A stretch of 64,000 nt of DNA, taken from NCBI RefSeq assembly GCF_002368415.1, contig NZ_AP018290.1:3175614-3239613 (forward strand). Direction: 5' to 3'. The position numbers and the translations under genes were made by a program. This document shows, one piece after another, positions 1 through 64,000 of this stretch. Position 1 is the stretch's first letter. Every line of letters starts with the position of its first letter. Source of the DNA: Calothrix sp. NIES-4105. Lineage in GTDB: Bacteria; Cyanobacteriota; Cyanobacteriia; Cyanobacteriales; Nostocaceae. The notes below the pieces were generated by a model. That model ran no database searches. It was not told the origin of the DNA and was given only the letters and a program-made list of their open reading frames with translations.

Positions 1-301
1 AACTAGGTGCAACTTTAAAACCTTCCAAATATATATTTGCCCATTGCACAAATGGTAAATTCCGAATAGCATCCAAATCAGCAGGTTCGTAACGACAGAT
101 GTAAGCGTTTTCTGGAACGTATTCAAGAATAGAGGCGCCCCGGTCTGCTAGTTGACTTTTTTGCTCGCGCGTTAGCGGTTGAGTTGCTTGGATTATTATA
201 TAGTTAGAGGTGGAACTATCTGGACTAATAAGACTGGCATATCCCATTGCATTGCTTTGCGCTGGGTCAATCGATATGCCATTGATAGTGATTTTCGTCA
301 T
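1..301 (-). CDS. S8 (subtilisin-like) family peptidase, N-terminal part
   Basis: About 100 codons read leftwards from an ATG at 299-301 and run off the window edge. A Shine-Dalgarno-like GAGGTG lies 4 nt upstream of the start. The product begins MTKITINGISIDP and contains LTREQKSQLADRGA and YICRYEPADLDAIRNLPFVQ. I recognise this as the prosegment-like N-terminus of cyanobacterial S8-family serine peptidases, which precedes the catalytic domain. The catalytic triad lies outside the window, so the assignment rests on the N-terminus alone. The nearby giant gene also carries a subtilase domain; any functional link is inference. Confidence 0.55.
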   Translation of the reverse strand, partial: MTKITINGISIDPAQSNAMGYASLISPDSSTSNYIIIQATQPLTREQKSQLADRGASILEYVPENAYICRYEPADLDAIRNLPFVQWANIYLEGFKVAPS

Positions 302-967
302 AGACACCTCATTCTGACTGCAAAAGCTAGCAAGCGTATTCTAGCTTGACGTATAAATTTTATTACTTACTTTTTATAGTTGTATTGTTTGTAAGAAAAC
401 GTAAAAAACGGTATTTGATTATATAGCTATTAATACGAAATGCGTAGGTTGGGTGGAGGAACCCAACATTTGCAAGACAAAAGTCGTGTAACGCGAGCGT
501 ATTTTTTTACCACAGAGGCGCAGAGTACACAGAGGGAAGAGTTATTAATAGTCAAGTTCAAATAACCTGTTTAGTAGATAGTACAAATCATCTAAATTAA
601 ATTCTCCTTCGTTTTCAGATTTTCCATCAGTCTTTAAATATTCAAATGCATTCTCTGCTGGCGCCGGCATTGACTTCTGTTTTACGCCATTGCTCCACAG
701 TTTTTTTAACTTCTTCTATTTCCTCAAAATTAACTTTTCCCTCTTCCTTTGTGTCCTTTGTGACCTTTGTGGTTCATAAAAGGAACAAACCACATAATCC
801 GGAGGATTTCCCGCAGGGTAGACACAAAGGACACAAAGAGAGGATAAGAGAAAAATAAAAAGATGTGTGTACACGGTAGTTCCCTACGAGAGGGAAAGGG
901 GAGAAGATTTAAAACCGTTAATTGTCAAGTGTTGGAAACCCTGAGATGGCAATCAATTAATGTCATG
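302..967. other. Repeat-rich intergenic region
   Basis: No intact gene. It holds a palindromic element of the GTAGGTTGGGTGGAG...AACCCAAC type (443-467) and a CACAGAGG...CAGAGTACACAGAGGG element (509-536). A CTTTGTGTCCTTTGTG element (741-774) is partly repeated in inverted orientation at 812-846. All belong to families that recur elsewhere in the window. A short decayed coding segment lies on the minus strand at 545-720. Confidence 0.7.
545..720 (-). pseudogene. Short decayed coding remnant, unknown family
   Basis: On the minus strand, 545-670 encodes 41 residues from an ATG, ending FNLDDLYYLLNRLFELDY. The DNA just upstream reads coding-like in a different frame (NFEEIEEVKKTVEQWRKTEVN) and stops shortly after the GGCGCC site near 659-664. 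Two acidic, helical-looking pieces in different frames suggest one small gene broken by a frameshift. I do not recognise the family. The 41-codon ORF alone could also be a real small gene. Confidence 0.25.
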
Positions 968-1642
968 TTATGCGGAGGTTTTTTTCTGCAAGCGCCGTTT
1001 CATGGCGGCGCCAAAACCAAAAGCAGCAAGAGAACCAAAAACAGTTAAGGGTTCAGGAACGGGTTCGTAATTTCCGTTTCTTAACGCAAGTCGTGATGAG
1101 CCAGTAGTATCATTTACATCAATAACACCAATACCAACCGTATAATTACCACCAGTATTAAAAGTATAGGAGAAAGGAGTACCGCTAGTTAAATTCAAGA
1201 TTGAATTACCAATGGCTACAAAAGCACGGTCTGCATTCACAGTATCGTAGGTTAAAAAGTCCCAATCAAAGCTGAACACATCCCCAGCTTGCACACCTGT
1301 AAAGATAGTTTTAATTACAGAACCTTCTGTCGCATCTACACCAAGACTTCCAGGAGCAATACCGATAAAAGTTTCTAAGTCATCAATGAAAAAATTTGGG
1401 TTGTTACCGGAAACGTTATAGTTGGCGCCACCATCATCGCTACCATCAGAGAATGCGTTAGTTAGTGTAGCTTGATTTAGAGAGGTGGTAAAATCACCAG
1501 AGCCTGTCCAATTGCTGAAATTAACACTGGCTGCAAATGCAGGAGAAGCGATCATTGTGCTACTAGCTGCAAATATGCTGTAAGTAATAGCCTTTTTTTT
1601 GAAGCGTTTTAGCAATGATTTGAAAGATGTTTTAGCTGACAT
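968..1642 (-). CDS. PEP-CTERM sorting domain protein
   Basis: 224 residues. The N-terminus has a basic stretch (KSLLKRFKKK), a hydrophobic core and an AFAA cleavage-like site near residue 38, so it is probably exported. The C-terminus has the PEP-CTERM signature: PVPEP, a hydrophobic segment, then MKRRLQKK. This signal is known to direct exosortase processing at the cell envelope. The body is Asn/Gly/Thr-rich and beta-like, as in other cyanobacterial PEP-CTERM proteins; no enzymatic motif is visible. A GGAG ribosome-binding site lies 7 nt before the ATG. It is an extracellular or surface protein of unknown ligand. No exosortase gene is in the window. Confidence 0.85.
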   Translation of the reverse strand: MSAKTSFKSLLKRFKKKAITYSIFAASSTMIASPAFAASVNFSNWTGSGDFTTSLNQATLTNAFSDGSDDGGANYNVSGNNPNFFIDDLETFIGIAPGSLGVDATEGSVIKTIFTGVQAGDVFSFDWDFLTYDTVNADRAFVAIGNSILNLTSGTPFSYTFNTGGNYTVGIGVIDVNDTTGSSRLALRNGNYEPVPEPLTVFGSLAAFGFGAAMKRRLQKKTSA

Positions 1643-1731
1643 AGAAACTCCGTTAGTTTTAGTGAGTGTTTTTAAAGAATTTGGTAGATGCCAGCTTGTT
1701 TGAAGGACAGGCAGTTAGCTATCCTACGTGA

Positions 1732-4700
1732 TTAAAATACAAAATTGTTGGGATTATTTAAGGCGCCACCACTGGCAACGTTTACGGTGATGAAAGGTCG
1801 GAAAATGTCTCTACCTGTAAGACCATCTGCATCTACTTCCACACCAAAGTTATTGCTAACACTACCCTGTACAACTCTGACGTAACCATCGGTAAAAGCA
1901 TTAGTACCGCTATAACCACCACTTACCAAGCTATCAAGTAATTGGGTAAACACTATTTTGTCAAAGCCAACCTCGAAGTCTGTGATGGTGTCACCTCTGT
2001 CGCGAATGCTTGTGTAGACAAAGCGGTCGTTACCTAAACCACCTGTGAGTGTGTCGCTTCCTACACCACCTGTAAGTTCATCATCTCCGGCGCCACCAAT
2101 TATAATGTCTCTTCCGCTACCTGTAGTCAGGATATCGTTGCCAGAACCACCTGTTACGGTTACGCCAGATGAGGTATCGTTATCCACGATAGTGAATACT
2201 GCAGTATTTTGGGCGCCAATTGTTGCCCCACCTTTAGGATTGCTTAGAGATAAATTGACGGTTTCGTTACCCTCAATTAAACCATCGTCAAAAATGGGGA
2301 TGACTACAGTCTTACTCAATTCGCCATCAGCAAAGAGAACGGGAATTAAGGCGTTGTTGTAATCTGTGCCAGCAGTAGCGGTACCATCAGTGAGTGTGAG
2401 TTGCGCTTCAACTTCTCCATCACTACCTTCTGTACGGTTGATGGTGACAGCAGTAATAGCTGTGCCGTCTTCTTTGATGCTAAATTCGGGAGTGCTAAAA
2501 GCTAGCTTACCAGAATTAGGAATGCGTTGGTTGCCAAAGTTAATATTAGTGGCAATTTCTCCAGCAGCTAGGGTAACACTATGACTCAATTTCAAGGAAC
2601 CACTGGGCAAATATAGCGGGTCATCGCTGGAGTTGTTATTGGGGTTGGAGTTACCAGGATTTACCACTTGGCTATTCAGATTCAGAATACCTTCTGCCAA
2701 TGCCAGCATGTTTACCCGTGGAAAGTTAAGTCCTGTATTGGTAACATTATCGTTTTCGTTATCACCGTCATTAATAATAATACTAGTGTTATCGATAAGG
2801 CTGCGGAATTCACTGAGGGTGAGTTTGCGTCCGAGTTTTTCAACAGCGATTTGCTGTGCAAGTACGGCAACCCCAGAGATGAAGGGGGTAGCTTTGCTAG
2901 TACCGCCCATTGTTTGGGTACCACCTGTGGCATTAGCACCTGTAACCAGGATACCTGGGGCAAAGACATCTAATAAAGTGGCGTGGCGTTGAGAGAAACT
3001 GGCAATTCGGTCTGCGTCTGTTGTATAGTCAGTTGCACCACCACTAAAGGTTTTGGAACCACCGAAATTATCTGCCCAGACGGCGCCTACTGCAATTGTA
3101 TTCGGGTCGGCAGCAGGATAGGCAAGTCCAGGCTTACTGTTGAATTGGTAGAAACTGTTACCAGCAGCAGCGGCAATAATGATATTTTTGGAGGCGATTG
3201 CTGCTAATTCATCACCGATACCGTAGCGGGAGTCGGAATTAACCCAGTTTTGACCATCTCCAACAGAAAGATTGACAGATGCAATATTATATTTGTCTGC
3301 GTTTTGATTGACCCATTGCAGTGCGGCTTCCAGTTCGGAGAAGTAACCAGTACCGTTATCTTTAAAGACTTTCAGGACGATGATGTTGGCGCCAGAAGCG
3401 ACAGAAGCGGCGATACTGGCGATGTGGGAACCGTGTCCGCTTCTATCGCTGGCATTGTTGTCTTTGTCGGCAAAGTCGTATTGGTAGATAATGCGGTCAG
3501 CAATGCCATCACCGTTATTGTCGGCGCCGAAGAGAGGATGGTCTAAGTCGATACCAGTGTCAATAATGACAGTAGCGTAACCCTGTCCTTTGATGTTGGC
3601 AAAGCGCGCATCTGCTTGGAAATCATCGAGGTTAATTAAGTTAGTAGCTGTAATCGGTTGGGTGTTGGTGGTGGTACTAAGGGGTGCGCTGGGGGTGAAG
3701 ATTTCTGTATTGGAAGCAGTGGTGCTAATTTCAACTAGGGGGTGGGTTTGTTTCCAACCATCTTGAACTACTTGAGCGACGTTATAAGTACCAGGACGAA
3801 GGTCATTAAAGGTGTAAGTACCTTGGGAGTCGGTAAGGGTTGAGGTTTCACTTGCATCTAGCTGGCTATTATTGTTGGCATCTAAATAAACTCTCCAACC
3901 TGGTAACGTAGACTCTCCATTATCTTTTATGCTATTCCCGTTGATATCATTCCAGGCAATACCGCGAATTTCGACATCGTTGTCTTGAATAGCAACGTTG
4001 ATATTGGGCAGCGTTAAACTGTTGTAATTACCATCGGTACTAGTGATGCTGTGAGTAATTGTACTGTTGTGGTTGCCTTCTGGGGTGGTGTCGTTAACTG
4101 CATTAACAGTGATGGTTTGAGGAGTGTTCCAGTTAACAGTAGTGAAGGTAAGGGTGGTTTTATCGCTGGTAATTTGATTTCCTGGCGCCAGTGTAATAGT
4201 AACATCAGCTGTAGGTTGGGTTCTTAGAACGAGGGTATAGGTATCAGAATTACCAGCTTCGGTAACTATTGTACTACCGTTCGTCTGGGTGAAGGTGACA
4301 CCAGGTGTTGCGGGTGTGGAAATAGTAAATGTTGCTGTTCTGGCAATATCACCGTTATTTCCTGCATTATCCTGAATGGTGGTTGCATCAACCCGTAATT
4401 GATAGGTACCTGGGGTATTAGTAAAGTTGTTTAAGCCATTAATGCGGTAGGTGGTATCGGACAGGTATTCTATAGTGACGGTATTGGGTAAAGTGATAGT
4501 TTCACCGTCACGGGTAAGAGTAATGTCGCTTCTGTCAAAGGTATTGAGATTGATTTGTTCGGAGAATTTGACATCAATATAGTTAACAGGGTTAAGGGTT
4601 GGGGTTTCTGGTAGGTTGAGGAATTGGCTAATAGTCGGTTTAGTGATATCAGCAAACAGGTTTAGAGGTGTGGTGGTTATATTTCCAGCAGCATCTACAA

Positions 4701-7700
4701 CTTGAATTTCTAACTCTCTGGCGCCTGCACTAGATAACTGTACGCTAGCATTAAAGTTAGTTCCGATAACAGATGCTTGTGCTAAAGATTGATTGAGAAC
4801 TTTATCGCGAACGTATACTTTTAATCCAGTTTCGCTGAGGGAACCTGTAATATCAATTGAGGTACTATTAACGCGAATTTGACCAGATTCATTTACAACG
4901 CCATTTGTGATTTGAATATTTGTTGCTGAAGAAGGAGCAATTGTATCCAAAGTCCAATTCTCAGTCAGGGAGTTAGTTACAACATTTCCATTAGTATCCT
5001 TAATTCCACTACCAACTACAGCCAAACTGTAACTTCCATCAGTAGATTGTAAGCCAGTTAAAGCATTGAGGCGATAGGTTGTGTCATTTAACTGAGTTAA
5101 ATTGGCACTATTTGTAATTAAATTTGTTGTACCATCACGGGTGAGAATGACATCGTTGAGGTCAAATGTTGTGGAATCAATAGCTTTAGAGAAGGCAATA
5201 TCAAGGCTAGTAACTTTCGTATTTCTAGGACTGGTTACATCAGTAATTGATAGCAATTTAGGAGCATTAGTATTTAATGCCCAAGTAAAACCTTTGGCGC
5301 CAACTCCTGTATTACCATCTGTATCAATTACACCCCTAGCATTAACTAAAAATGTGTATTCGCCATCAACATTGGTTAAATCACCCAGGTTACTAATTTG
5401 GTAAGTGCTAGCGTTAATTGGGGTGATAGTAACGGTATTCTTAATTAAATCGCCACCACCATCACGGTTGAGGAACAAATCGTTAAAATCAAAGCTGCTG
5501 GGGTTAATTGCTTCGGTAAAAGTAACAGTAATCGGGTTATTAATGGGAGTGTTCAAACGGGTAGAAGTGAAACCAACGATACCAGCAACAGCGGGACGGT
5601 CGCCAGTAAATACCCAAGATTCGTTAACAATTCCTGTGCCAGAAAGTCCTTCAAAATCCTCTACTCCAGCCGCATTGACACTAAGTTGATATTGTCCAAC
5701 ATTGCCTGTAATGCCTTGCAAGTTGCCAATGCGATAAGTGTTAGTATTTACCTGTGAAATACTAAGATTATTAGTATTTAACGCAACACCATCAAGGGTC
5801 AAGCTGATATCACTGTTATCAAAAGTGGCTGCTTTGATAGGTTCGGTAAAGACAACATCAATGGTATTAACGGTTGTGTTGCGGGGGTTGGGGTCAACGT
5901 CAACAATGTCTCTAACTTTTGGCGGGGTTTGGTCGCCTGTAGTATAGGTAATGGTGTAGGTTTTGGCGCCTGCGGTAGCGTTGTTGTCGAGTAAATGTAA
6001 GATATTTTCGTAGATTGGGCGCCCAGTAGCGGGGAAAGTGCGGTCAGTTGTCCACACATTATCTAAAACAACTTCTGTACCATCAGCACGAACAACCCGC
6101 TTGATTTGGAATTGTCCGTTACCAGGGTCTAATAAACGCAGGTAATTCCATCCTGACTCCACATTTGCACTGACTTGAACTGTTAAATCTTCAAAGGTTG
6201 CGGCGCCGTCTGCAGCAGTGTTGGTGACAGCTTTTACAGGCGCCGTGCCACCACTGCTAAAGTAAAGTGTATCGGGGGTAAAGTTTGCATCAAATTGGTC
6301 GTTAACTAGAAAATCTGAAAGGTCATCGGGGTTAGCATGGTCAACCTTAACTTTGCGGATAAGTTCGTGGATTTTGACTTCTTTAATTAAAGAAAGTTCG
6401 GCGTTGCCAAGACCGTTAACATGTTCAAAAGTAGCGTCGTAGTCAATAAATTTACCTTGCAAACTTGACTTAAGTAACCAGTCAGCAACAGCGGTTTCTC
6501 CAGCTTTGATATCGCCAAAGTTGACAGAAAGCGAGGGGGTAACAGCTTCGTTATTGACTTGACTACCAATAATTTGGAAATCAATCAGTAACCCTTTTTC
6601 ATTCTCGATAATTTTGGGTTGAGCAGAAGTAATTTTAAGGTTTTTCGCATCACCTTTACCTTCGTTGCGGACTAAAACACCAAGGGAGAAGGGAACTGAT
6701 GGTTCAACTGTGTCAGTAAAGGGGTCATCTGCGAAGACATCCCGTTGCTGGAAGTAGTCGAGATATAGTTCCGCTTGAGGATAGACGGTGATAGGAGTAG
6801 AGAGTAAAGGAACGGTGATAAGTTGGCCGTTTTCTGTATAGGAGAGAGTACCACCAATACTGTATTGAGTAGGAACTTCAGGTGCAGCAAGGTTAGTGGG
6901 GATGAATGTCCATTCGGCGCCACCAATACCTTCATCTTGGGGGGTGTTGGGGTCATCTCCTCTGAGGATACCTGTACCATCAACAGCAGTAATGTTTTTG
7001 AGGATGGGGTTGGTAATACCAAAGAGGTCGTTGACGACGTTACCTTGTGCGTCTTTGACTTGCAGGGTGACAGTGAGGTTTTCAAGGTTAGTAGTGTTAC
7101 CGTTGTCAATTTCTAGTTCGCCAAGGAAAGCAGAACGGGTCATTACAGCTTCTTGGTCAATGCTGATACGGACTTGGGCACAAACTCCGTCAGAAGGTTT
7201 TTTGAAAAAACGAGGGTCTAGAGGGTCAGTTCCATCTTGATTCTCACTAGCATCATCAACACCATCACCATCAGAATCTTTTGCAATGGGTTTGGTATTG
7301 ATTAAAGTTTCAAATATATCTGTCAATCCATCGCCATCAATATCTGATTGAGCATCATTAGCAATATTTGGATTGAGTCCTACCTTTCTTTCATAGGAGT
7401 CTACTATTTGATCGCCATCACTATCTACGTCAGTAATAGCAAATTGACCAATACCTATATCATCACCGTTACGAACCATAACATAGAGAGTGGGAGTATA
7501 GGTAGCAATAGGATTACGAGTATTTAGGATATTAAGCAAGCCATCAGCGGATACTTGGACAAATTCATCCTCTTCCATGACAAAATATTTAGTGCCAGAA
7601 GCAGAAGATGTAATATCTATAGTAGTACCATCTGAATTTTTTCTATTGACTTGAAGCTGTATATTTTCCCCTACTTTAAGGAAAAACTGGCCATTCGCAC

Positions 7701-10700: not shown

Positions 10701-13700
10701 CATCAACTGCATTTATGGCAAAGGTTGCAGAAGCTTGACCCGCTAAAATTGTGACTTGGGTGGGAACTGTTGCTTCCGTGGTATCACTAGAAGCAAGAGT
10801 AACAACTAAATCCTGATCGGTTATAACGTTGCGGGTAACAGTACCTATAGCGGCGCCATTTCCGGCATTTTCTGCAACAATCTCCTTATTAATTGATACA
10901 CCCAAAGTAGGCGCCTGTCCATTATCCAAAATTGTCAGGACTGCTGTACTTTGGGTTCCCAGCACTGCACCACCAGTGGGGTTGCTTAAGCTGAGGTTAA
11001 CGGTTTCATTTGGTTCAACTGTAATATCGTTATTAACTGGAATGAAAACGGTCTTACTGGTTTCTCCATCCGTAAAGGAAACAGTTATTGGGGTATTGTT
11101 ATAATCGCTCGGAGCAGTTGCCGTCCCGTCAGTTAAATTAATAGTGGCGCCAACAACTCCTGTTAATCTGCCAGTACGAGTAACAGTAACAGCAGTTACA
11201 GCTTCTCCATTCTCGCGGATACTAAAGTTAGCAGTACTAAAATCAAGGGCAACATCATCATCAAGAATTTTAACGCTAGCACTACCTTGATTACCAATGG
11301 TAGCGCCACCAGTAGGATTTGTCAGATTAATTGTAAAGCTTTCATCCCCCTCAACTTTGGCATCATTACGGATGCGGATGGCATTATTTCCCCCTAAAGA
11401 AGCTAACTCAACGGGGATAACTTTACTTGTTTCTCCGTCAGCTAGGGTGACACTAAAGGAACCATTGTAAAAGTCGTTATTAACTGAACTCGCCACACAA
11501 CCGCAACCTGTAGCAGTACCATCAGTAAAGGTAATTGTGGCACTTACTGCTCCCGTTGCCCTTCCCGTGCGGGTTACAATGATATCAGTAACGGCAGTAC
11601 CATCTTCACGAACTGTATAATTACCTGTACTAAAGTTTAGTTGAGTATCGTCATCGGCGATTGCTACAACTGCTGTATTCTGATTACCAATTGTCGCACC
11701 ACCTGTGGGTGAGGTGAGAGTCAGGTTTATTGTCTCCGTTCCTTCAACTAGAGTATCGTTGATGACCGGAATGGTAATAGTTTTCGGCGCTGTGTCCCCA
11801 TTGGCAAAGGTGACAGTAATAGGATTATTGTTATAGTCACTAGGCGCCGTTGCTGTACCATTACTTAAGGAAATTGTGGCGCCGACTTCCCCATCACTTC
11901 CACCTGTACGGGTGACAGTTACTGTAGTAATTGGCGTACCATCTTCGTTAACGCTGTAAGTAGGATTACTGAAGCTTAAAATCCCTTGTCGAGGTGTGTC
12001 GTTATTGAAAATGGTTAGAGTAGCAGTATTTTGAGTGCCAATAGTTGCACCATTAGTGGGGTTACTCAGCGCTAAGTTGATAGTTTCATTGCTTTCAAAT
12101 AGCGTGTCATCAACGATAGGAATGGTGACAATTTTGGAAGTTTCCCCATCGGCAAAGGTTACAGTTATAGGATTGCTGTTGTAGTCAGTGGGCGCCGTTG
12201 CAGTACCATTACTAGGTGTTAAAGTCGCACTAACTTCCCCATCGCTTCCACCCGCACGGGTGATAGTAACAGCTATAACAGGAGTGCCGTCTTCATTAAC
12301 GCTATATGTAGAACGACTAAAAGCTAAGGTTCCTGGAACAGCAAAATCATTATCAATGATGGTAAAGACAGCGGTATTTTGCGTTCCCAACGTAACACCA
12401 TTACTGGGGTTAGTAAGAGCAAGGTTAATAGTTTCATTCGCTTCAAAACTGGTGTCATCAACTATGGGAATAGTAACTATTTTGCTGGTTTCGCCATCTG
12501 CAAAGGTTACGGGGATGGAAGAATTATTGTAATCAGCAGGTGCGGTTGCTGTACCATTGGTAAGCGCTAGGGTAACGCTAATTTGACCTATGCTACTTCC
12601 CACGCGGGTGAAAGTGACTTGTGCAGTTCCATTTTCGCTGACACTGTAAGTTCCACTAGCAAAAGCAACTTCATTAATAGGGGCAACGTATTCAAAAGCA
12701 TTGGAAGTCAGATTTAACCCCGTAACATTTTGAAAAACTGCAATTAATTCATCCGGTTCGCTACCTGCTTTGTCAATATAAAGATTAGTGTTGCTACCAG
12801 AAACTTCTAAACGATAGTTACTGGCAGAACCCTGTAACTGAACCTTATCTTCGCTGGGGTTGAAGTCAGTGAGCGTGGCATAGTCGTTATTGCCATTAGT
12901 TAAAGTATTGCGGTCATCGTAATAAATGTTGGCACTGTCACCTAAGATAAAGCGATCGCTTCCCGTCCCTCCACTTAAGCTGTCTCTTTCACCGATACCA
13001 GGGTTGTTGCTGTTGACATCAATACCAGTTAGAGTATCATTTCCGGCGCCACCAAACAGCCCTAAACGAAATCCCTCGTCACTACCAGCACCACCAAATA
13101 ACTGGTCATCACCATCACCTCCATCCACTCGGTCACTACCATCTCCACCACTGAGGGTATCATTGCCTGCTTCTCCATAAATTAGGCTAGTACCATTTCC
13201 TGTGGTGACATTATCATTGCCAGCACCAGCATAAATTTCATCGGCATTGAAATAATCAGTACTTCCCTGTGTTGCAGTGATATTAATTGTGTCATTCCCG
13301 CTACCAGTCCTAAGATTTATCCGCTCAATTTCTTTGAAGCTAGTGCCATCAGAGACTGTTCCGTTACTCGTATCTGTATAGTTGACATTTAGATTTGTTG
13401 AAAGTGCCGACCTATCAAGATTAAGCACGTCATACCCAACACCACCAATAACCGTGTCAACCCCTGTACCTGGGTCGAGGAAATCATCGCCATCTCCCCC
13501 ATCTAAAGTATCATTACCAGCTTCACCATATAGTTCATCATTACCCGCTTCGCCAAAAATCGCATCATTACCGGCGCCGCCATACAAACCAATTCGCTCG
13601 AAATCTCCAGGGTATGACTCGAAACCACTATCATCTCCTGCTCCACCGCGAATCGTATCATCGCCATCACCACCTTCAATTTTGTCACGCCCTGAACCAG

Positions 13701-16131
13701 TTTGAATTGTGTCGTTTCCAGCACCACTACGTACCCAAGTGTTGCCTGTGGTTTGTGCAGTCGTTATCGTGTCGTTGCTACTGCCTGTGAGTATGTTAAA
13801 GCTTTCAATATTTTGGAAACTGGTACCGTTGGATACTGTACCGCTAGTGGCATTAGTAAAGCTAATTGAAAGATTAGTCGTACTCGCAGATAGATTTAAG
13901 AATAATCCATCATTACCTGCTCCCCCGTCTACTTGGTCTATTCCTGTACCAGGGTCAAGGTAATCATCGCCATCTCCCCCATTTAAAGTATCATTGCCAG
14001 CTTCACCGTAAAGTTCATCATTACCTGCTTCACCAAAAATCGCATCATTGCCAGTGCCACCAAATAAACCAATCGCCTGTAAATTTCCAGCGTATCTCTC
14101 AAATCCGCTATCATCTCCGGCGCCACCGCGAATTGTATCGTCGCCATCACCGCCTTCGATTTTATCCCGTCCGGCGCCTGTTTGGATTGTGTCATTTCCA
14201 GCACCACTACGCACACGAGTGGCACCTGTGGTTTGTGCAGTTGTTATAGTATCATTGCCACTACCTGTCTGTAGGTCAAAGCTTTCAATATTCTGGAAAC
14301 TAGTACCGTTAGAGACTGTACCGTCAGTGGCATTGGTAAAGCTAATTGAAAGATTAGTCGTACTCGCAGATAGATTTAAGAATAATCCGTCATTACCTGC
14401 TCCCCCGTCTACTTGGTCTATTCCTGTACCTGGGTCGAGGAAATCATCGCCATCTCCCCCATTTAAAGTATCATTGCCAGCTTCACCGTAAAGTTCATCA
14501 TTACCTGCTTCGCCAAAAATCGCATCATTGCCGGCACCACCAAATAAACCAATCGCCTGTAAATTTCCAGCGTATCTCTCAAATCCGCTATCATCTCCGG
14601 CGCCACCGCGAATTGTATCGTCGCCATCACCGCCTTCGATTTTATCCCGTCCGGCGCCTGTTTGGATTGTGTCGTTTCCAGCACCACTACGCACACGGGT
14701 TGCACCTGTGGTTTGTGCAGTTGTTATATTATCATTGCCACTACCTATCTGTAGGTCAAAGCTTTCAATATTCTGGAAACTAGTACCGTTAGAGACGGTA
14801 CCGTCAGTGGCATTGGTAAAGCTAATTGAAAGATTAGTCGTACTCGCAGATAGATTTAAGAATAATCCATCATTACCTGCTGCTCCATCTACTTGGTCTA
14901 CTCCTGTACCTGGGTCGAGGAAATCATCGCCATCTCCCCCATTTAAAGTATCATTGCCAGCTTCACCGTAAAGTTCATCATTACCTGCTTCGCCAAAAAT
15001 CGCATCATTCCCAGTGCCACCAAATAAACCAATCGCCTGTAAATTTCCAGCGTATCTCTCAAATCCGCTATCATCTCCGGCGCCACCACGAATCGTATCA
15101 TCGCCATCACCGCCTTCGATTTTGTCGCGTCCGGCGCCAGTTTGGATTGTGTCGTTTCCAGCACCACTACGCACACGGGTTGCACCTGTGGTTTGTGCAG
15201 TTGTTATAGTATCATTGCCACTACCTGTCTGTAAGTCAAAGCTTTCAATATTCTGGAAACTAGTACCGTTAGAGACTGTACCGTCAGTGGCATTGGTAAA
15301 GCTAATTGAAAGATTAGTCGTACTCGCAGATAGATTTAAGAATAATCCATCATTACCTGCTGCTCCATCTACTTGGTCTACTCCTGTACCTGGGTCGAGG
15401 AAATCATCGCCATCTCCCCCATTTAAAGTATCATTGCCAGCTTCACCGTAAAGTTCATCATTACCTGCTTCGCCAAAAATCGCATCATTCCCAGTGCCAC
15501 CAAATAAACCAATCGCCTGTAAATTTCCAGCGTATCTCTCAAATCCGCTATCATCTCCGGCGCCACCACGAATCGTATCATCGCCATCACCGCCTTCGAT
15601 TTTGTCGCGTCCGGCGCCAGTTTGGATTGTGTCGTTTCCAGCACCACTACGCACACGGGTTGCACCTGTGGTTTGTGCAGTTGTTATAGTATCATTGCCA
15701 CTACCTGTCTGTAAGTCAAAGCTTTCAATATTCTGGAAACTAGTACCGTTAGAGACTGTACCGTCAGTGGCATTGGTAAAGCTAATTGAAAGATTAGTCG
15801 TACTCGCAGATAGATTTAAGAATAATCCATCATTACCTGCTCCCCCGTCTACTTGGTCTATTCCTGTACCTGGGTCGAGGAAATCATCACCAGCACCTCC
15901 AAAGAGAGAATCATCACCATCACCTCCATTAAGTTGGTCGCTACCGTCTCCACCGTTGAGAGTATCATTACCTGCACCTCCATTAAGACTGTCATTACCT
16001 TCACCTCCATCAAGCTCATCGTTTCCTGCCAAACCACTAAGGGTATCATTGCCTCCATAACCAAAAATTTTGTCATTGTCAGCAGTACCTGTTAGCGTGT
16101 CATTATTTGGTGTACCGAAAATATCTGCCAT
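1732..16131 (-). CDS. Giant RTX / Calx-beta / subtilisin-like surface or secreted protein (4,799 aa)
   Basis: One uninterrupted 14.4-kb frame. Order from the N-terminus: RTX calcium-binding nonapeptides (GGxGxD) and five near-identical 160-residue units (about 1-1130); six Calx-beta domains (about 1150-1740); a CARDB-like segment (about 1845); a helical Cys-containing domain; thrombospondin type-3-like DxDGDG repeats (about 2900-2980); four bacterial Ig-like domains (about 3400-3935); an SdrD-B-like domain (GIAWNDINGNSIKDNGE, about 4050). Then comes an S8 peptidase domain with triad Asp4191 (IIDTGID), His4233 (SGHGSH) and Ser4412 (GGTSKATPF), one more Calx-beta domain and terminal RTX repeats. 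There is no N-terminal signal peptide; a C-terminal RTX tail is typical of type I secretion. No T1SS genes are in the window. Likely a calcium-dependent extracellular protease/adhesin; substrate unknown. AAGGA lies about 10 nt upstream of the ATG. Confidence 0.93.
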   Translation of the reverse strand: MADIFGTPNNDTLTGTADNDKIFGYGGNDTLSGLAGNDELDGGEGNDSLNGGAGNDTLNGGDGSDQLNGGDGDDSLFGGAGDDFLDPGTGIDQVDGGAGNDGLFLNLSASTTNLSISFTNATDGTVSNGTSFQNIESFDLQTGSGNDTITTAQTTGATRVRSGAGNDTIQTGAGRDKIEGGDGDDTIRGGAGDDSGFERYAGNLQAIGLFGGTGNDAIFGEAGNDELYGEAGNDTLNGGDGDDFLDPGTGVDQVDGAAGNDGLFLNLSASTTNLSISFTNATDGTVSNGTSFQNIESFDLQTGSGNDTITTAQTTGATRVRSGAGNDTIQTGAGRDKIEGGDGDDTIRGGAGDDSGFERYAGNLQAIGLFGGTGNDAIFGEAGNDELYGEAGNDTLNGGDGDDFLDPGTGVDQVDGAAGNDGLFLNLSASTTNLSISFTNATDGTVSNGTSFQNIESFDLQIGSGNDNITTAQTTGATRVRSGAGNDTIQTGAGRDKIEGGDGDDTIRGGAGDDSGFERYAGNLQAIGLFGGAGNDAIFGEAGNDELYGEAGNDTLNGGDGDDFLDPGTGIDQVDGGAGNDGLFLNLSASTTNLSISFTNATDGTVSNGTSFQNIESFDLQTGSGNDTITTAQTTGATRVRSGAGNDTIQTGAGRDKIEGGDGDDTIRGGAGDDSGFERYAGNLQAIGLFGGTGNDAIFGEAGNDELYGEAGNDTLNGGDGDDYLDPGTGIDQVDGGAGNDGLFLNLSASTTNLSISFTNATSGTVSNGTSFQNIESFNILTGSSNDTITTAQTTGNTWVRSGAGNDTIQTGSGRDKIEGGDGDDTIRGGAGDDSGFESYPGDFERIGLYGGAGNDAIFGEAGNDELYGEAGNDTLDGGDGDDFLDPGTGVDTVIGGVGYDVLNLDRSALSTNLNVNYTDTSNGTVSDGTSFKEIERINLRTGSGNDTINITATQGSTDYFNADEIYAGAGNDNVTTGNGTSLIYGEAGNDTLSGGDGSDRVDGGDGDDQLFGGAGSDEGFRLGLFGGAGNDTLTGIDVNSNNPGIGERDSLSGGTGSDRFILGDSANIYYDDRNTLTNGNNDYATLTDFNPSEDKVQLQGSASNYRLEVSGSNTNLYIDKAGSEPDELIAVFQNVTGLNLTSNAFEYVAPINEVAFASGTYSVSENGTAQVTFTRVGSSIGQISVTLALTNGTATAPADYNNSSIPVTFADGETSKIVTIPIVDDTSFEANETINLALTNPSNGVTLGTQNTAVFTIIDNDFAVPGTLAFSRSTYSVNEDGTPVIAVTITRAGGSDGEVSATLTPSNGTATAPTDYNSNPITVTFADGETSKIVTIPIVDDTLFESNETINLALSNPTNGATIGTQNTATLTIFNNDTPRQGILSFSNPTYSVNEDGTPITTVTVTRTGGSDGEVGATISLSNGTATAPSDYNNNPITVTFANGDTAPKTITIPVINDTLVEGTETINLTLTSPTGGATIGNQNTAVVAIADDDTQLNFSTGNYTVREDGTAVTDIIVTRTGRATGAVSATITFTDGTATGCGCVASSVNNDFYNGSFSVTLADGETSKVIPVELASLGGNNAIRIRNDAKVEGDESFTINLTNPTGGATIGNQGSASVKILDDDVALDFSTANFSIRENGEAVTAVTVTRTGRLTGVVGATINLTDGTATAPSDYNNTPITVSFTDGETSKTVFIPVNNDITVEPNETVNLSLSNPTGGAVLGTQSTAVLTILDNGQAPTLGVSINKEIVAENAGNGAAIGTVTRNVITDQDLVVTLASSDTTEATVPTQVTILAGQASATFAINAVDDGVADGAQTAIITASATGFSSGSRNLTVTDINVPDLVVSNLSATTPLLSGKQAFFSYKVENKGLAQATTTEANPSIDRIYLSTDNKLDSSDTLLSEFQFKGEFPVGQFYERNVPFFVPRSTGQYYLIAQTDATNTVNEGGSIGDNNNTTILPISVAAAYRATVSTNTEIGIAGQSVTFQGQALSNGDNSPVPFEFVTIAVKNNGFVRELSAFTDANGNFTSTFKPLAAEGGQYQINAYFPNNPTEDTAAEDSFKLLGMRFASNSAAYKVIADKTFTAQVNLENLTDVALNGLTYTVEGAPSDWNIQVNTPSTLAGSGNDTISYTITAPNNSAITQDSFNIKLTSAEGVTASLPVSVNLERNVPRLVASTNLVSSGMLRGNQTAVEFEVKNEGGAVAENIELLVPNVSWLKLASPTKINALAPGESTKVTLLLTPEADLALTEYTGNIVLDAVGNDGDLLLPFNFRAVSNAIGEIRINTVDELFYFAEGSPKLANATVTLRNYFTNEVVKNAVTDETGMINLSNINEGFYKLEITSDNHETFRQTIQLDAGETENINAFLSRQTVRYIWNVTPTEIEDRYNISVESVFETNVPVPTLTIDPPLIDLADLDVIGEVMQIDMTITNHGLIAANDVRLNFGEHPFYKIEPLIENAGSLSAKSSLTIPVKITRIADFDTLNLNSSNFQIITQSIPSIPCSLSGGLSWSYICGGNNLSKGSAIAINNVEGNCLGSGFINPFGGFASGIIIAPIGFSSPTPCEPPEECEYEDVIQALQNDYNKKRDTLSAALANQKLCIAQKAAANENSWGGGFVKELFCEIAENARNGKESISDRILSNLPDWLGNVRIPISIGGVTILVPLKDIAALLGGLSHFINELTPGFADAARKGTLDDSEHQRFFEEAVVPCFEQVYQAGQLSFLAKLIAQQVVPSGAALLREILQGLAGFNLLSQENILKPNFLSEAKPVSNLDITSSAASNNFTTLPLSLKQEELFSQHLASISTLDVSANGQFFLKVGENIQLQVNRKNSDGTTIDITSSASGTKYFVMEEDEFVQVSADGLLNILNTRNPIATYTPTLYVMVRNGDDIGIGQFAITDVDSDGDQIVDSYERKVGLNPNIANDAQSDIDGDGLTDIFETLINTKPIAKDSDGDGVDDASENQDGTDPLDPRFFKKPSDGVCAQVRISIDQEAVMTRSAFLGELEIDNGNTTNLENLTVTLQVKDAQGNVVNDLFGITNPILKNITAVDGTGILRGDDPNTPQDEGIGGAEWTFIPTNLAAPEVPTQYSIGGTLSYTENGQLITVPLLSTPITVYPQAELYLDYFQQRDVFADDPFTDTVEPSVPFSLGVLVRNEGKGDAKNLKITSAQPKIIENEKGLLIDFQIIGSQVNNEAVTPSLSVNFGDIKAGETAVADWLLKSSLQGKFIDYDATFEHVNGLGNAELSLIKEVKIHELIRKVKVDHANPDDLSDFLVNDQFDANFTPDTLYFSSGGTAPVKAVTNTAADGAATFEDLTVQVSANVESGWNYLRLLDPGNGQFQIKRVVRADGTEVVLDNVWTTDRTFPATGRPIYENILHLLDNNATAGAKTYTITYTTGDQTPPKVRDIVDVDPNPRNTTVNTIDVVFTEPIKAATFDNSDISLTLDGVALNTNNLSISQVNTNTYRIGNLQGITGNVGQYQLSVNAAGVEDFEGLSGTGIVNESWVFTGDRPAVAGIVGFTSTRLNTPINNPITVTFTEAINPSSFDFNDLFLNRDGGGDLIKNTVTITPINASTYQISNLGDLTNVDGEYTFLVNARGVIDTDGNTGVGAKGFTWALNTNAPKLLSITDVTSPRNTKVTSLDIAFSKAIDSTTFDLNDVILTRDGTTNLITNSANLTQLNDTTYRLNALTGLQSTDGSYSLAVVGSGIKDTNGNVVTNSLTENWTLDTIAPSSATNIQITNGVVNESGQIRVNSTSIDITGSLSETGLKVYVRDKVLNQSLAQASVIGTNFNASVQLSSAGARELEIQVVDAAGNITTTPLNLFADITKPTISQFLNLPETPTLNPVNYIDVKFSEQINLNTFDRSDITLTRDGETITLPNTVTIEYLSDTTYRINGLNNFTNTPGTYQLRVDATTIQDNAGNNGDIARTATFTISTPATPGVTFTQTNGSTIVTEAGNSDTYTLVLRTQPTADVTITLAPGNQITSDKTTLTFTTVNWNTPQTITVNAVNDTTPEGNHNSTITHSITSTDGNYNSLTLPNINVAIQDNDVEIRGIAWNDINGNSIKDNGESTLPGWRVYLDANNNSQLDASETSTLTDSQGTYTFNDLRPGTYNVAQVVQDGWKQTHPLVEISTTASNTEIFTPSAPLSTTTNTQPITATNLINLDDFQADARFANIKGQGYATVIIDTGIDLDHPLFGADNNGDGIADRIIYQYDFADKDNNASDRSGHGSHIASIAASVASGANIIVLKVFKDNGTGYFSELEAALQWVNQNADKYNIASVNLSVGDGQNWVNSDSRYGIGDELAAIASKNIIIAAAAGNSFYQFNSKPGLAYPAADPNTIAVGAVWADNFGGSKTFSGGATDYTTDADRIASFSQRHATLLDVFAPGILVTGANATGGTQTMGGTSKATPFISGVAVLAQQIAVEKLGRKLTLSEFRSLIDNTSIIINDGDNENDNVTNTGLNFPRVNMLALAEGILNLNSQVVNPGNSNPNNNSSDDPLYLPSGSLKLSHSVTLAAGEIATNINFGNQRIPNSGKLAFSTPEFSIKEDGTAITAVTINRTEGSDGEVEAQLTLTDGTATAGTDYNNALIPVLFADGELSKTVVIPIFDDGLIEGNETVNLSLSNPKGGATIGAQNTAVFTIVDNDTSSGVTVTGGSGNDILTTGSGRDIIIGGAGDDELTGGVGSDTLTGGLGNDRFVYTSIRDRGDTITDFEVGFDKIVFTQLLDSLVSGGYSGTNAFTDGYVRVVQGSVSNNFGVEVDADGLTGRDIFRPFITVNVASGGALNNPNNFVF
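13471..15870 (-). repeat. Five tandem 480-bp in-frame repeats inside the giant gene
   Basis: The block beginning TGGGTCGAGGAAATCATC or a close variant recurs at 13471, 13951, 14431, 14911 and 15391, always 480 bp apart, with the next boundary at 15871. Each unit encodes 160 residues: an LSISFTNAT beta-rich half and a GGAGDD/GEAGND RTX half. Units at 14911 and 15391 are almost base-for-base identical; the unit at 13471 is the most diverged (NTWVRS, FESYPG). This pattern indicates recent expansion or gene conversion. Confidence 0.95.
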
Positions 16132-16410
16132 AAGATGATATTCCTTTTTCCATTAAATAGTGTTTTTATTCGTATGCGGACACTACCTGATATGTCAAAA
16201 CATCACACATCAAGTAGCTATAAATAGCTGTACAGAAGTGATGAATAATTAATCAAAACATTTATGCAACCAGAAAAATATACAATTGAAATATCTCACA
16301 TCTGCTAATAGCAGCAATGTCATACTTCATGCTTTCATTTATAGCTATCCTGCATAATTTGTATTCACATAGTGTGCGTGAAACAATTGAATTGATAAAT
16401 TCAGCATTTT

Positions 16411-16518
16411 TCACGAATGATTTAGAATTGCTATATATTCGAGGGTTAAGATTGTTGGGTTATGTCGTTTTGCTGCGATCGCGATTGCAAATTCTTGAAT
16501 ATCGAGGCTTTGGCTCAT
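16411..16518 (-). pseudogene. N-terminal remnant of a conserved cyanobacterial protein
   Basis: Read on the minus strand from an ATG at 16516-16518, the sequence gives MSQSLDIQEFAIAIAAKR followed by HNPTILT, then degenerates and stops after 35 codons. From memory, the DIQEF(A/G)xAIAAKxHNPTILT pattern begins a widespread cyanobacterial protein of about 170 residues with unknown function. Only the first 30 or so codons remain. One of the two HIP1 palindromes in the window lies inside this remnant. Confidence 0.4.
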
Positions 16519-16853
16519 GCTAGATCAATGCTCCGTGAGTTAAATTATGACAAGATAAAATATTTACAACCAGGCATCAGTCTGATTGTAAGGTCAAATA
16601 TTCTGCTGAATATACTTGGTAGACACTCCCTGCACAATTTTTAAACACTCTGCGAATAAGTACTGTTAACTCTTGTTTTATTAAACACTGTAGTAGCATA
16701 TCATTTACTTAGATTATTTAGAAAAATAAAAATGATAATTAGTATAAATTTATATTCTCTTCACACTTGAGCAGAGTTTAGAAAGGTATAAAGCAAACAA
16801 TTTAATTTTATATGAAGTAGATTGTTTGTACGAGAATGTTGTGATATCGTATC

Positions 16854-16963
16854 TGACATCTTGCACCACGAGCTTGTTGAGAATAAAAGCGCTTGTAATG
16901 CTTATTCTTGCGTAGGGTGGGCAATGCCCACCTTACCCTTGTTGAGAAGGTGCATTCCGGTGA
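16854..16963. mobile_element. MITE-like palindromic element, copy 1
   Basis: A 110-bp element. The left end TGACATCTTGCACC matches the ends of the copy at 19746-19853. The right end GGTGCATTCCGGTGA matches the ends of the copy at 31542-31655. Internally it has a GTAGGGTGGGCAATGCCCACC palindrome and GTTGAGAA boxes shared with the other copies. It has no coding capacity. The mismatched ends suggest recombination between two subfamilies. Confidence 0.6.
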
Positions 16964-17281
16964 GGTATGTAACTTACTTAGCATCGAATATTGTTTATCG
17001 TTACTATTTAGCACTACAACAGATTATTTTACAACGCGCGGCACCGTTGCTAGCTATGATTGGCGCCATGAGTAAGAATGACTTAGAGCTAGCAGACTCT
17101 GGTAAATGGAGATGATCTACTACTATTTGTAAAAATTTAGCGACTTTTTCCGTAATACCCGTAAGTGAAGGTGAAGTTATTTACTATATAGTGCATCAGG
17201 GTAGGAGGGCGTTTGTGAATATTTAGACTCGATGTTTTCGGAGAATTTATCAAATTTGTAACCTCAAAACTAGAGAAAAAT

Positions 17282-62557: not shown

Positions 62558-62572
62558 TACATTAACCCCAGT

Positions 62573-63316
62573 TTATGCTTTTGTAAATAACATTAAATGT
62601 TGCTGTGGTAGTAAGTTTTTTGTTTCTTGCCATGTTAAACCAACGGCTTGCATTTCTTTTTTAACTTGCTTTTGCGTCATTTTATGCAGCGCTTTAATCA
62701 TAATGAAAGGGTTTTCTCCCCGATATTCTACTAATGCTACTCGACCACCTGGTTTTAATGCTTTGAATATACCTTGCATCATTTCATGAGGATATTCAAA
62801 TTCATGATACGCATCTACCATTACTGCTAAGTCTATACTACTAGGCGCCAAATTAGGGTTAATCACAGTTGCTAAAACAGGTTCTATGTTAGAAATTTGC
62901 TTTTCTTGCTTAAAAAACTCGATAATATCTAACATTTCTGGTTGAATATCTACTGCCAAAACTTTACCCTGTGTCAAGGTCGGCGCCATCAAAAAGCTTA
63001 GATAACCTGTACCGGCGCCAATATCAGCAACAACATCTGAGGGTTTTAGTGAGAGCGCTTTAACTATCTTACTAGGTTGTTCTTCAGCTTCTCGACTGGG
63101 ACGTTCTAACCACATGGCGCCAGTATGTCCCATTACGTGCGCTATTTCCCGACCCATGTATATTTTACCAATGCCATCAGGATTATGAATCGCACGGTGT
63201 TCGTATTCGGTAGTTGTAATAGTACTGGCATTTACCGTAGTAGGGTAAATTAACAAGCTAGATATAAAAATAACTATGATTGTACAAAATAATTTTGCCC
63301 GGTTATGAATTATCAC
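62573..63316 (-). CDS. Exported class I SAM-dependent methyltransferase
   Basis: About 247 residues from GTG 63316; the open frame extends to ATG 63442, but that would overlap the aldo/keto reductase by 71 nt and span a hairpin. From the GTG the N-terminus is a signal-peptide-like stretch (AKLFCTIIVIFISSLLIYP, cleavage near VNAS). The methyltransferase core has motif I VVADIGAGTGYLSF, acidic VLAVDIQPEM and the post-motif LAVMVDAYHEFEYP. The target is unknown. Extracytoplasmic SAM enzymes are unusual; a membrane-anchored form is also possible. It is likely co-transcribed with the upstream reductase. Confidence 0.75.
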   Translation of the reverse strand: MIIHNRAKLFCTIIVIFISSLLIYPTTVNASTITTTEYEHRAIHNPDGIGKIYMGREIAHVMGHTGAMWLERPSREAEEQPSKIVKALSLKPSDVVADIGAGTGYLSFLMAPTLTQGKVLAVDIQPEMLDIIEFFKQEKQISNIEPVLATVINPNLAPSSIDLAVMVDAYHEFEYPHEMMQGIFKALKPGGRVALVEYRGENPFIMIKALHKMTQKQVKKEMQAVGLTWQETKNLLPQQHLMLFTKA

Positions 63317-63352
63317 GATTATTTGGTTAAAAATCAGAACATTAACAGCAAG

Positions 63353-63368
63353 TAGGCGCTTGCGCCTA
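63353..63368. terminator. GC-rich hairpin after the aldo/keto reductase
   Basis: TAGGCGC-TT-GCGCCTA is a 16-bp hairpin just beyond the reductase stop codon (minus strand). No strong T-run follows, so it may be only a processing or stabilising element. Confidence 0.35.
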
Positions 63369-63371
63369 TAA

Positions 63372-64000
63372 TTAGCGATACTCGTCTCCACAATCCCCAA
63401 TAATTTGATACAAATCTTCCGATTTTTGAGATATTGCGTCAATTTGCTTCAAATCATCACCATTTAACGCTAAGTCAAATACTTTCACGTTATCTTCCAA
63501 ATGCTCTGATATACTTAAGCGCGCGCCAACAATTACACCACCAACAGCGGGCTTATCTAATATATAACGTACAGCAATATTCGCAATACTACAGTTATGT
63601 TTATCAGCAAGTTGCTTTAAGGTTGACAGCAACTCTTGGAATAAACTCCAACCACCCCAAGCATCAACCATATTTTTATACTTACGCAAACTAACTGTTG
63701 CCAACTCAGCCCCGCGCGGTTCGGGTTTTCCTAAATATTTCTCTGACAACAACCCACCGCAAAGTGTACCGTAAGTAAATAGTTTAATATTGTGCTGCTG
63801 ACAAAAGTTAATCATATTAACTTCAGGGCGCCTGTCAACGAGCGAAAATTGAACTTGATTTGAAACAATTTTAATGCCTGCTTCTGTAATAATTTGTAGA
63901 TGCTCGGTATCAAAATTAGTCAAAGCTAAATGCTTAATTTTGCCCTCTGATTGTAACTCAGCCATATATTTAAGGGCATCAAGGTAATTACTATCGCGGT
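63372..64000 (-). CDS. Aldo/keto reductase family protein, C-terminal part
   Basis: Open to the window edge: the frame extends past the Met at 63965 to NYLDALKYMAELQSEGKIKH. It includes LALTNFDTEHLQIITEAGI, VSNQVQFSLVDRRPE, LFTYGTLCGGLLSEKYLG and a C-terminal NADPH-binding-type segment VGGVIVGARLSISEHLEDN. The N-terminal catalytic Tyr region is outside the window. The family reduces carbonyl compounds with NADPH; the substrate is unknown. Confidence 0.88.
   Translation of the reverse strand, partial: RDSNYLDALKYMAELQSEGKIKHLALTNFDTEHLQIITEAGIKIVSNQVQFSLVDRRPEVNMINFCQQHNIKLFTYGTLCGGLLSEKYLGKPEPRGAELATVSLRKYKNMVDAWGGWSLFQELLSTLKQLADKHNCSIANIAVRYILDKPAVGGVIVGARLSISEHLEDNVKVFDLALNGDDLKQIDAISQKSEDLYQIIGDCGDEYR

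What the first reader, a model, noticed from the sequence alone, without database searches (positions are those of the whole stretch)
1..64000. GGCGCC behaves as this genome's highly iterated palindrome in place of HIP1
I count about 110 GGCGCC sites across the window, roughly one per 570 bp, in coding and intergenic DNA alike. For DNA of about 40% GC about four would be expected by chance. The classical cyanobacterial HIP1 (GCGATCGC) appears only near 12951 and 16477. HIP1 abundance is established for many cyanobacteria and has been linked to solitary methyltransferases. A lineage that has switched to a 6-bp GGCGCC motif would be an informative exception.
Basis: partly seen in the sequence, partly recalled or inferred. 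Interest (0 to 1): 0.75.

Follow-up and report, generated by a model that had tools for sequence, protein, structure and literature searches.

The report
GGCGCC replaces HIP1 across a genus
A group of large cyanobacteria has lost the short palindrome that litters its relatives' genomes and carries thousands of copies of a different one, GGCGCC; this was already reported for one strain, but all seven genomes of the genus looked at here share it, together with a lone DNA-methylating enzyme that is predicted to mark it.

Summary
The window has 112 GGCGCC sites (3.7 expected from base composition) and two HIP1 sites. The 12.04-Mb genome has 18,131 GGCGCC, 7 of the reversed control CCGCGG, and 125 HIP1.

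It is not new: Elhai 2015 (PMC4390886) described GGCGCC as the alternate HIP of Calothrix PCC 7103 and D253; PCC 7103 is a congener.

What the calls add: (1) All 7 genomes of the genus held here are HIP1-poor and GGCGCC-rich (two by sample only); none of 113 sampled genomes of other genera in the family is GGCGCC-rich. (2) A solitary C5 methyltransferase sits at a conserved place; in other genera its homologue often adjoins a HindVP/BsaHI-type GRCGYC nuclease, not found here. (3) Losses are mostly C3-to-T, 80 against 35 expected, as if GG(m5C)GCC; other losses are 42 against 96, and synonymous transitions at positions 1, 2, 5, 6 are 12 against 46.6.

The motif looks methylated and maintained. 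Methylation is unmeasured, selection cannot be told from biased repair, and the methyltransferase alone does not suffice.

The parts
1..64000 (.). 112 GGCGCC sites spread over the window (first at 134, last at 63827), mean gap 574 bases
   Evidence: positions; spacing; called ORFs 1.91/kb, other 1.22/kb. The methyltransferase proposed to act on them lies outside the window, at G000:C1:10505798-10506793 (-)
12952..12959 (.). one of two HIP1 (GCGATCGC) sites, inside the 4799-aa ORF
16475..16482 (.). second HIP1 site, outside the called ORFs
13463..15892 (.). 480-bp tandem array (5.1 copies) within the 4799-aa ORF; carries 9 of the 112 GGCGCC sites, so these are not independent

Best explanation
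GGCGCC is an alternate highly iterated palindrome that took the place of HIP1 in an ancestor of one genus (the group holding Dulcicalothrix desertica PCC 7102 and Calothrix PCC 7103 and 7716) and has been inherited since (shown as a distribution; the single origin is inferred). A methyltransferase of a GRCGYC restriction-modification family stands alone here, without the nuclease that its homologues often have in other genera (shown; that it once had one and lost it is inferred). It probably methylates the inner cytosine, giving GG(m5C)GCC (inferred from the family's known chemistry and from a C3-to-T excess). Free of cutting (inferred), the sites multiplied to 1.15-1.71 per kb genome-wide in the five genomes counted, and they are now kept against mutation at synonymous positions as well, so a force acts on the motif itself (shown as a pattern; whether it is selection or biased repair is not shown). 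HIP1 was probably removed by GATC restriction (GATC depleted; DpnII-family nuclease in 5 of 5 genomes of the genus tested), but that alone does not explain it.
For: Distribution: 5 of 5 genomes of the genus in a 118-genome family sample have 1,150-1,711 GGCGCC per Mb; the 83 genomes with neither gene have a median of 4.7. HIP1 is 31-163 per genome in 7 of 7 and 990 or more in 111 of 113 genomes of other genera. Methyltransferase: intact at one syntenic place in 6 of 7 genomes, with the catalytic motifs looked for (in G076 that place shows only fragments at contig ends, plus a copy elsewhere); dN/dS 0.05-0.15. Homologue plus PF09519 nuclease (8 of the 21 nucleases interrupted or split): median 0.66 GGCGCC per Mb; nuclease motifs of the BsaHI family. 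M.BsaHI methylates the central C (PMC2413257). Footprint: losses of ancestral GGCGCC are C3-to-T in 26 of 31 (10.3 expected), or 80 of 122 with relaxed ancestry (35.1 expected); all other losses 42 against 96.0. GGTGCC is the one-off most raised in the genus against the outgroup pool, 1.56 and 0.57. Maintenance: synonymous transitions at positions 1, 2, 5, 6 are 12 against 46.6, synonymous transversions at positions 3 and 4 are 3 against 20.4; GGCGCC is the best conserved of 646 hexamers between PCC 7716 and this genome, 206 of 273 against 0.473 for all hexamers; Gly-Ala GGC-GCC pairs are identical in 98 of 123 against 47 of 88 for the other codon pairs.
Against: The same methyltransferase without the nuclease in genus g22 (4 of 4 sampled) goes with only 20-43 GGCGCC per Mb and 6,611-7,706 HIP1, so it does not suffice. 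DpnII-family nucleases occur in 8 of 113 other genomes, which keep 1,973-6,966 HIP1. G022 lost most HIP1 (535 in 10.7 Mb) with GATC at 0.02 of expectation, no DpnII-family match and no alternate palindrome in 160 kb. Against same-codon expectation, transitions at positions 3 and 4 are raised only slightly, 60 against 47.0, so the hotspot is plain only relative to the other positions; synonymous transversions at positions 1, 2, 5, 6 are only mildly short, 12 against 18.6. No methylation data. This genome has 12 other C5 methyltransferase ORFs over 300 aa, one of them (L011) also present in 7 of 7, and any could contribute. Only one gain of GGCGCC from GGTGCC is cleanly polarised. The p-values are not corrected for kinship.
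Confidence: 0.7

Rival explanations
1. On the maintaining force (compatible with the rest of the best explanation): Elhai's ratchet. A G-m5C-dependent mismatch repair keeps mutations that create GG(m5C)GCC, so the motif piles up as a by-product of repair, with no selection for it.
For: The methylated inner C that the model needs agrees with the footprint and with M.BsaHI. With relaxed ancestry, gains at 7 of 17 GGTGCC sites against 1.06 expected and at 2 of 3 GACGCC sites against 0.14. GACGCC and GACGTC are at 0.27 and 0.16 of expectation. Spacing is slightly more even than random: variance/mean 0.73-0.95 in 2-kb bins in the pooled samples of 5 genomes.
Against: Elhai thought a second GRCGYC methyltransferase may have been critical, but G101 has one match genome-wide and G118 one among its C5 methyltransferase loci. 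With strict ancestry there were 0 gains at 28 one-off sites (0.34 expected). Of the 11 relaxed gains, 3 have the outgroup already at GGCGCC (one of the GGTGCC and one of the GACGCC cases among them), which suggests a loss elsewhere, and 4 have no outgroup sequence. The G-m5C nicking enzyme is hypothetical (Elhai's own text).
Confidence: 0.3
2. On the maintaining force (compatible with the rest of the best explanation): selection for the motif itself, as a binding site for a chromosome-organising, repair or recombination protein that reads GG(m5C)GCC.
For: Conservation at synonymous positions far above codon expectation for transitions; best conserved hexamer of 646 against this genome, 24th of 1148, 1st of 1315 and 6th of 1042 in the closer pairs; the motif is also on the smaller contigs C2 and C3 (1,231 and 3,571 per Mb in one 13- and one 14-kb stretch).
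Against: No reader protein was looked for or found; reduced mutation by repair would give the same pattern.
Confidence: 0.35
3. Very-short-patch repair by a Vsr-like nuclease turns GGTGCC into GGCGCC, as in E. coli at Dcm sites.
For: Raised C-to-T and possibly raised T-to-C rates at one position fit a methylated C.
Against: Vsr (PF03852) has 0 matches in 7 of 7 genomes of the genus while 5 of 14 control genomes ring. GGTGCC is in excess, 1.56, not depleted. Losses at positions other than C3 are rarer than expected too, which T:G repair would not cause.
Confidence: 0.05
4. Compositional bias or repeats: the excess reflects CpG or GC-rich repeats.
For: CGCGCG is also raised, 4.4-fold in this genome.
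Against: G+C is 39%, CCGCGG is 7 in the genome, most one-offs are at or below expectation and the raised ones other than GGTGCC are raised in the outgroup pool too, and 565 of 575 surroundings are distinct.
Confidence: 0.01

Closest known systems
GGCGCC alternate HIP of Calothrix PCC 7103 and D253 (Elhai 2015, PMC4390886; abstract, sections 9, 13, 19, section 18 part 1 of 2, and found passages seen)
   Same: Same motif, same near-absence of HIP1 (14 per Mb there, 10 per Mb here), same GATC depletion, same predicted GRCGYC methyltransferase; PCC 7103 is in the same genus sample (G115).
   Different: Here the trait is shown in 7 of 7 genomes of the genus, one syntenic solitary gene is identified together with the nuclease partner its homologues have elsewhere, and substitution footprints are given. 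Elhai called exceptional HIPs sporadic, not in clades.
HIP1 (GCGATCGC)
   Same: Genome-wide short palindrome, about one per kb, over-represented many-fold, tied to methyltransferases (as described by Elhai).
   Different: Different sequence; the methylation predicted here is m5C inside GGCGCC rather than at GATC and CGATCG.
BsaHI / HgiDI / HindVP GRCGYC restriction-modification family (Neely and Roberts 2008, PMC2413257, parts 1-3 of 4 read)
   Same: Homologous C5 methyltransferase with nearly the same recognition loop as the nuclease-linked homologues; in other genera beside a PF09519 nuclease, 7 of 11 checked with all three published motifs exact.
   Different: No PF09519 gene in 5 of 5 genomes of this genus searched, and the target is abundant instead of depleted.

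Membership tests
Highly iterated palindrome (alternate HIP, Elhai's sense) | Palindrome grossly over-represented genome-wide, about one per kb | tested here: met
   18,131 in 12.04 Mb; 19.8-23.8 fold in samples of 7 genomes of the genus
Highly iterated palindrome (alternate HIP, Elhai's sense) | HIP1 low where related genomes have it high | tested here: met
   31-163 in 7 of 7; 111 of 113 genomes of other genera have 990 or more
Highly iterated palindrome (alternate HIP, Elhai's sense) | A methyltransferase able to act on the motif is encoded | tested here: met
   Homologue of nuclease-linked GRCGYC-type enzymes, intact in 6 of 7, fragments at contig ends plus another copy in the seventh; encoded only, activity not assayed
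Highly iterated palindrome (alternate HIP, Elhai's sense) | The motif is methylated in the cell | not testable with these tools
   Only an indirect C3-to-T footprint
GRCGYC C5 methyltransferase (BsaHI/HindVP type) | C5 methyltransferase motifs and target-recognition loop of the family | tested here: met
   PF00145 at 1.2e-65; PCQ, ENV, RxR, GNAVP present and a recognition loop differing by a few residues from nuclease-linked homologues. Not compared with the M.BsaHI sequence itself, which was not at hand
GRCGYC C5 methyltransferase (BsaHI/HindVP type) | Cognate HindVP-type nuclease (restriction-modification system) | tested here: not met
   PF09519 in 0 of 5 genomes of the genus (G118 and G119 not in that sample); no tblastn match in the genus loci fetched by then. 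Hence a solitary methyltransferase, not a restriction system
GRCGYC C5 methyltransferase (BsaHI/HindVP type) | Specificity GRCGYC shown biochemically | not tested
   Inferred from family, partner nuclease and low GGCGCC in nuclease-bearing genomes

The most novel reading that the evidence does not exclude
A whole genus has exchanged its genome-wide methylated palindrome: a restriction system decayed to a lone methyltransferase whose m5C mark at GGCGCC was taken over for the cell-level job that HIP1 does elsewhere, and the motif is now held by selection in spite of a raised deamination rate at its own centre.
Probability: 0.35. Interest if true: 0.75.

Novelty: new member of a known kind. Interest (0 to 1): 0.5.

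Why it matters
What HIP1 is for has long been an open question. A clade that switched and then diverged (dS up to about 0.9 at the methyltransferase gene) allows rates of gain and loss of a highly iterated palindrome to be measured against an outgroup, and it speaks against the argument that alternate HIPs do not persist in clades. It also gives a concrete gene to delete and a concrete base to look for.

Tried and rejected
Vsr-type repair: PF03852 not found in 7 of 7 genomes of the genus, and GGTGCC is in excess. Solitary methyltransferase as sole cause: rejected by genus g22. DpnII-type restriction as sole cause of HIP1 loss: rejected by 8 HIP1-rich genomes that carry it. A recognition loop changed to read only GGCGCC: not supported. 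The loop of this genome and of G101 differs from that of the g20 homologues by two residues, one of which (E) was in no nuclease-linked homologue printed, and four genomes of the genus share a G-to-S change after the TI pair that this genome and G101 lack, so that change is not common to the genus. Organism name through plasmids: two 1%-coverage matches only. NCBIfam and PADLOC gave no specificity. The O/E values were wrong (the expectation function was taken from the last genome of the loop); one search replaces them. One search was a first, smaller run of the test. One search was a first try whose translations read the wrong strand for most loci; one search replaces it. Two genomes outside the family with high GGCGCC counts were looked at: G187 has 55% G+C in an 8-kb sample, so its count looks ordinary; for G327 the 2,550 bases received contain no G or C letters and are probably masked. 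A later paper on selection for HIP1 (Xu, Lawrence and Durand 2018) is recalled from memory; a search for it did not list it, and it was not read.
Full report
OBSERVATION. The window holds 112 GGCGCC in 64,000 bases against 3.7 expected from base composition, and two HIP1 sites, at 12952 and 16475. The genome, 12,037,678 bases in 8 contigs, has 18,131 GGCGCC, 7 of the reversed control CCGCGG, and 125 HIP1. Sites lie in called ORFs at 1.91 per kb and elsewhere at 1.22 per kb; 565 of 575 sites in 356 kb of own DNA have different surroundings, so repeats do not explain them.

PRIOR ART. Elhai 2015 (PMC4390886; abstract, sections 9, 13 and 19, section 18 part 1 of 2, and found passages) reported GGCGCC as the alternate HIP of Calothrix PCC 7103 and of the fragments of strain D253, with GATC depletion and two GRCGYC methyltransferases in PCC 7103, and proposed a repair ratchet. 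My paper searches (ranked listings, those capped at 30 of 536 and 15 of 4,429) listed no later paper on GGCGCC as a HIP; the library holds open-licence papers only.

GENUS-WIDE. In 118 genomes of the family (56 genera), GGCGCC is 7,475-18,131 in the 5 genomes of this genus and 0-1,053 in the other 113. The two genomes of the genus not in that sample (G118, G119) have about 1,700 per Mb in the 271-304 kb fetched. HIP1 is 31-163 in all 7. Among the 113 others HIP1 is below 1,000 only in G082 (30), G022 (535) and G083 (990). In a 386-genome sample of the phylum (only the own genome from this genus), the table as I read it shows one other genome with over 1,000 GGCGCC and more than ten times its reversed control: G327, 2,493 against 38. 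Elhai wrote that exceptional HIPs occur sporadically, not in clades; this genus is a clade that has kept one.

THE METHYLTRANSFERASE. PF00145 gives 17 matches in this genome, from 13 ORFs over 300 aa and two fragments, some ORFs being matched twice. Across the seven genomes two groups are present in all: the gene at C1:10,505,798-10,506,793 (331 aa) and another one, L011. The first lies at one syntenic place, between an S-layer-homology-like protein and a RuBisCO-like, pyrC and phosphoglycerate-mutase neighbourhood (names recalled from the sequences, not from a call), with no recognised nuclease beside it. In three genomes (G115, G118, G076) a second methyltransferase (L003 type) with a partner ORF that has no Pfam, NCBIfam or PADLOC match in the one copy scanned has come to lie beyond the RuBisCO-like gene. 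In G076 the syntenic place shows only fragments at contig ends, with another copy elsewhere, so intactness there is shown for 6 of 7. In 29 genomes of other genera in the sample a homologue exists at E of 1e-40 or better, a few of them fragments. In 19 of the 25 homologue loci fetched from other genera it adjoins a related ORF, which in the 3 copies scanned is RE_HindVP, PF09519. PF09519 is in 22 of 118 genomes and 0 of 5 of this genus. Of 11 nuclease ORFs checked for the three motifs described for the BsaHI family (PMC2413257), 7 have all three, 2 have WGKNCF in place of WGKNQF, 1 has two variants (WGKNCF, SPERRLD) and 1 is a fragment without them; all 11 have E[IV]KLTA. GGCGCC per Mb: median 0.66 with both genes (21 genomes; in 8 of them the nuclease is interrupted or split), 18.8 with the methyltransferase only (8), 4.7 with neither (83); both against neither, Mann-Whitney p = 0.0007, not corrected for kinship. 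[quoted passage not shown] in passages seen of PMC8565308 an m5C method finds GRCGYC in Haemophilus influenzae Rd. The genus gene is under purifying selection, dN/dS 0.05-0.15, and its six copies form one starred group together with the second G076 copy. Two further copies of the family lie on contigs C2 and C3 of this genome.

FOOTPRINT. I aligned four close genomes (PCC 7716, 7103, 7102, FI2-JRJ7; 94.7-96.0% identical to each other) with this genome as outgroup (about 87%) over 99 kb five-way and 159 kb four-way. With strict ancestry (outgroup and at least 3 of 4 agree) there were 86 ancestral sites and 31 losses: 26 are C3-to-T (or G4-to-A), 10.3 expected from trinucleotide context; the other classes total 5 against 18.7. 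With relaxed ancestry (3 of 4 ingroup) there were 261 sites and 122 losses: 80 against 35.1, and 42 against 96.0. GGTGCC is over-represented in the genus, 1.56 of expectation against 0.57 in the outgroup pool, whose loci all surround a homologue of this methyltransferase and may hold a few loci twice; GTCGCC (1.30) and GCCGCC (1.20) are also above 1 but are so in the outgroup pool as well. This is what a methylated inner cytosine that deaminates would leave.

MAINTENANCE. At third codon positions, synonymous transitions at motif positions 1, 2, 5 and 6 number 2, 0, 2 and 8 against 8.8, 4.7, 7.9 and 25.2 expected from the same codons elsewhere; at positions 3 and 4 they are 38 and 22 against 32.8 and 14.2. 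Synonymous transversions at positions 1 to 6 are 0, 1, 2, 1, 2 and 9 against 3.5, 1.2, 13.5, 6.9, 2.8 and 11.1: strongly short at the centre, little at the ends. GGCGCC is the best conserved of 646 hexamers (n of at least 80) between PCC 7716 and this genome, 206 of 273 against 0.473 for all hexamers; it ranks 24th of 1148, 1st of 1315 and 6th of 1042 in the three closer comparisons. In Gly-Ala pairs conserved in both, GGC-GCC is identical in 98 of 123, the other codon pairs in 47 of 88 (p = 8e-5), and GGC-GCC makes up 57-62% of such pairs. Protein constraint therefore does not explain the conservation. Selection and a repair bias both would.

GAINS. Relaxed ancestry gives 11 gains at 104 one-off sites against 2.4 expected, 7 of them at 17 GGTGCC sites. 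Of the 11, three have the outgroup already at GGCGCC and are better read as losses elsewhere, four have no outgroup sequence, three have an outgroup hexamer that is neither state, and one (GGCACC to GGCGCC in PCC 7102) is cleanly polarised. The strict set, which also demands agreeing flanks, gives 0 of 28 against 0.34. The ratchet is thus neither shown nor excluded.

HIP1 LOSS. GATC is at 0.05-0.19 of base-composition expectation in the genus and 0.62 in the outgroup pool. A DpnII-family nuclease without stops is in 5 of 5 genomes of the genus and in 8 of 113 others, but those 8 keep 1,973-6,966 HIP1. G022 and G083 have GATC at 0.02 and 0.10, low HIP1 and no DpnII-family match; in neither does another palindrome stand out as GGCGCC does here, and HIP1 is still the top octamer palindrome of both samples. 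So GATC restriction fits HIP1 loss loosely and does not by itself produce an alternate HIP.

ELHAI'S SECOND COPY. Elhai suggested that a second GRCGYC methyltransferase may have been critical. G101 shows one match genome-wide at E of 1e-40 or better and still has 1,150 GGCGCC per Mb, so a second copy is not needed to keep the trait.

VERDICT. Real, already described in a sister strain, here extended to a genus with a named gene, a methylation-like footprint and evidence of maintenance. The function of the motif remains unknown; my lean is slightly to selection over biased repair, without a decisive test.

Noticed in passing
G000:C1, 379185-383620 (7 sites) and 867356-913095 (10 sites), among the first places listed: Some of the few HIP1 sites of this genome are clustered in short stretches, which may mark DNA acquired from HIP1-bearing cyanobacteria; GGCGCC density there was not examined.
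   Followed up: no
G327 (same order, other family): 2,493 GGCGCC in 6.2 Mb against 38 CCGCGG: a possible second, weaker GGCGCC lineage. The stretch fetched (L266) had no G or C letters.
   Followed up: partly
G022 (genus g23), L158-L165: HIP1 only 535 in 10.7 Mb, GATC at 0.02 of expectation and no replacing palindrome in 160 kb: a relative almost without HIPs.
   Followed up: partly
genus samples: In the five best-sampled genomes many palindromes are all but absent: CCGCGG, TGCGCA, TTCGAA, CCATGG, GTGCAC, CGTACG and GTCGAC at 0-2 against about 16-116 expected, pointing to several past or present restriction systems. CGCGCG is raised 2.3- to 5-fold in all seven.
   Followed up: no
L011 and orthologues: A second C5 methyltransferase is also present in 7 of 7 genomes of the genus (72-78% identical to this one); its target is unknown.
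   Followed up: no
window 1732-16131 (-): 4799-aa ORF with 17 RTX calcium-binding stretches, 6 Calx-beta stretches and a subtilase domain, with 480-bp internal repeats.
   Followed up: partly
G115 (PCC 7103): In the five-way aligned DNA PCC 7103 has more GGTGCC (36 against 20-23) and fewer GGCGCC (158 against 168-181) than the other four, as if the motif were decaying there.
   Followed up: no
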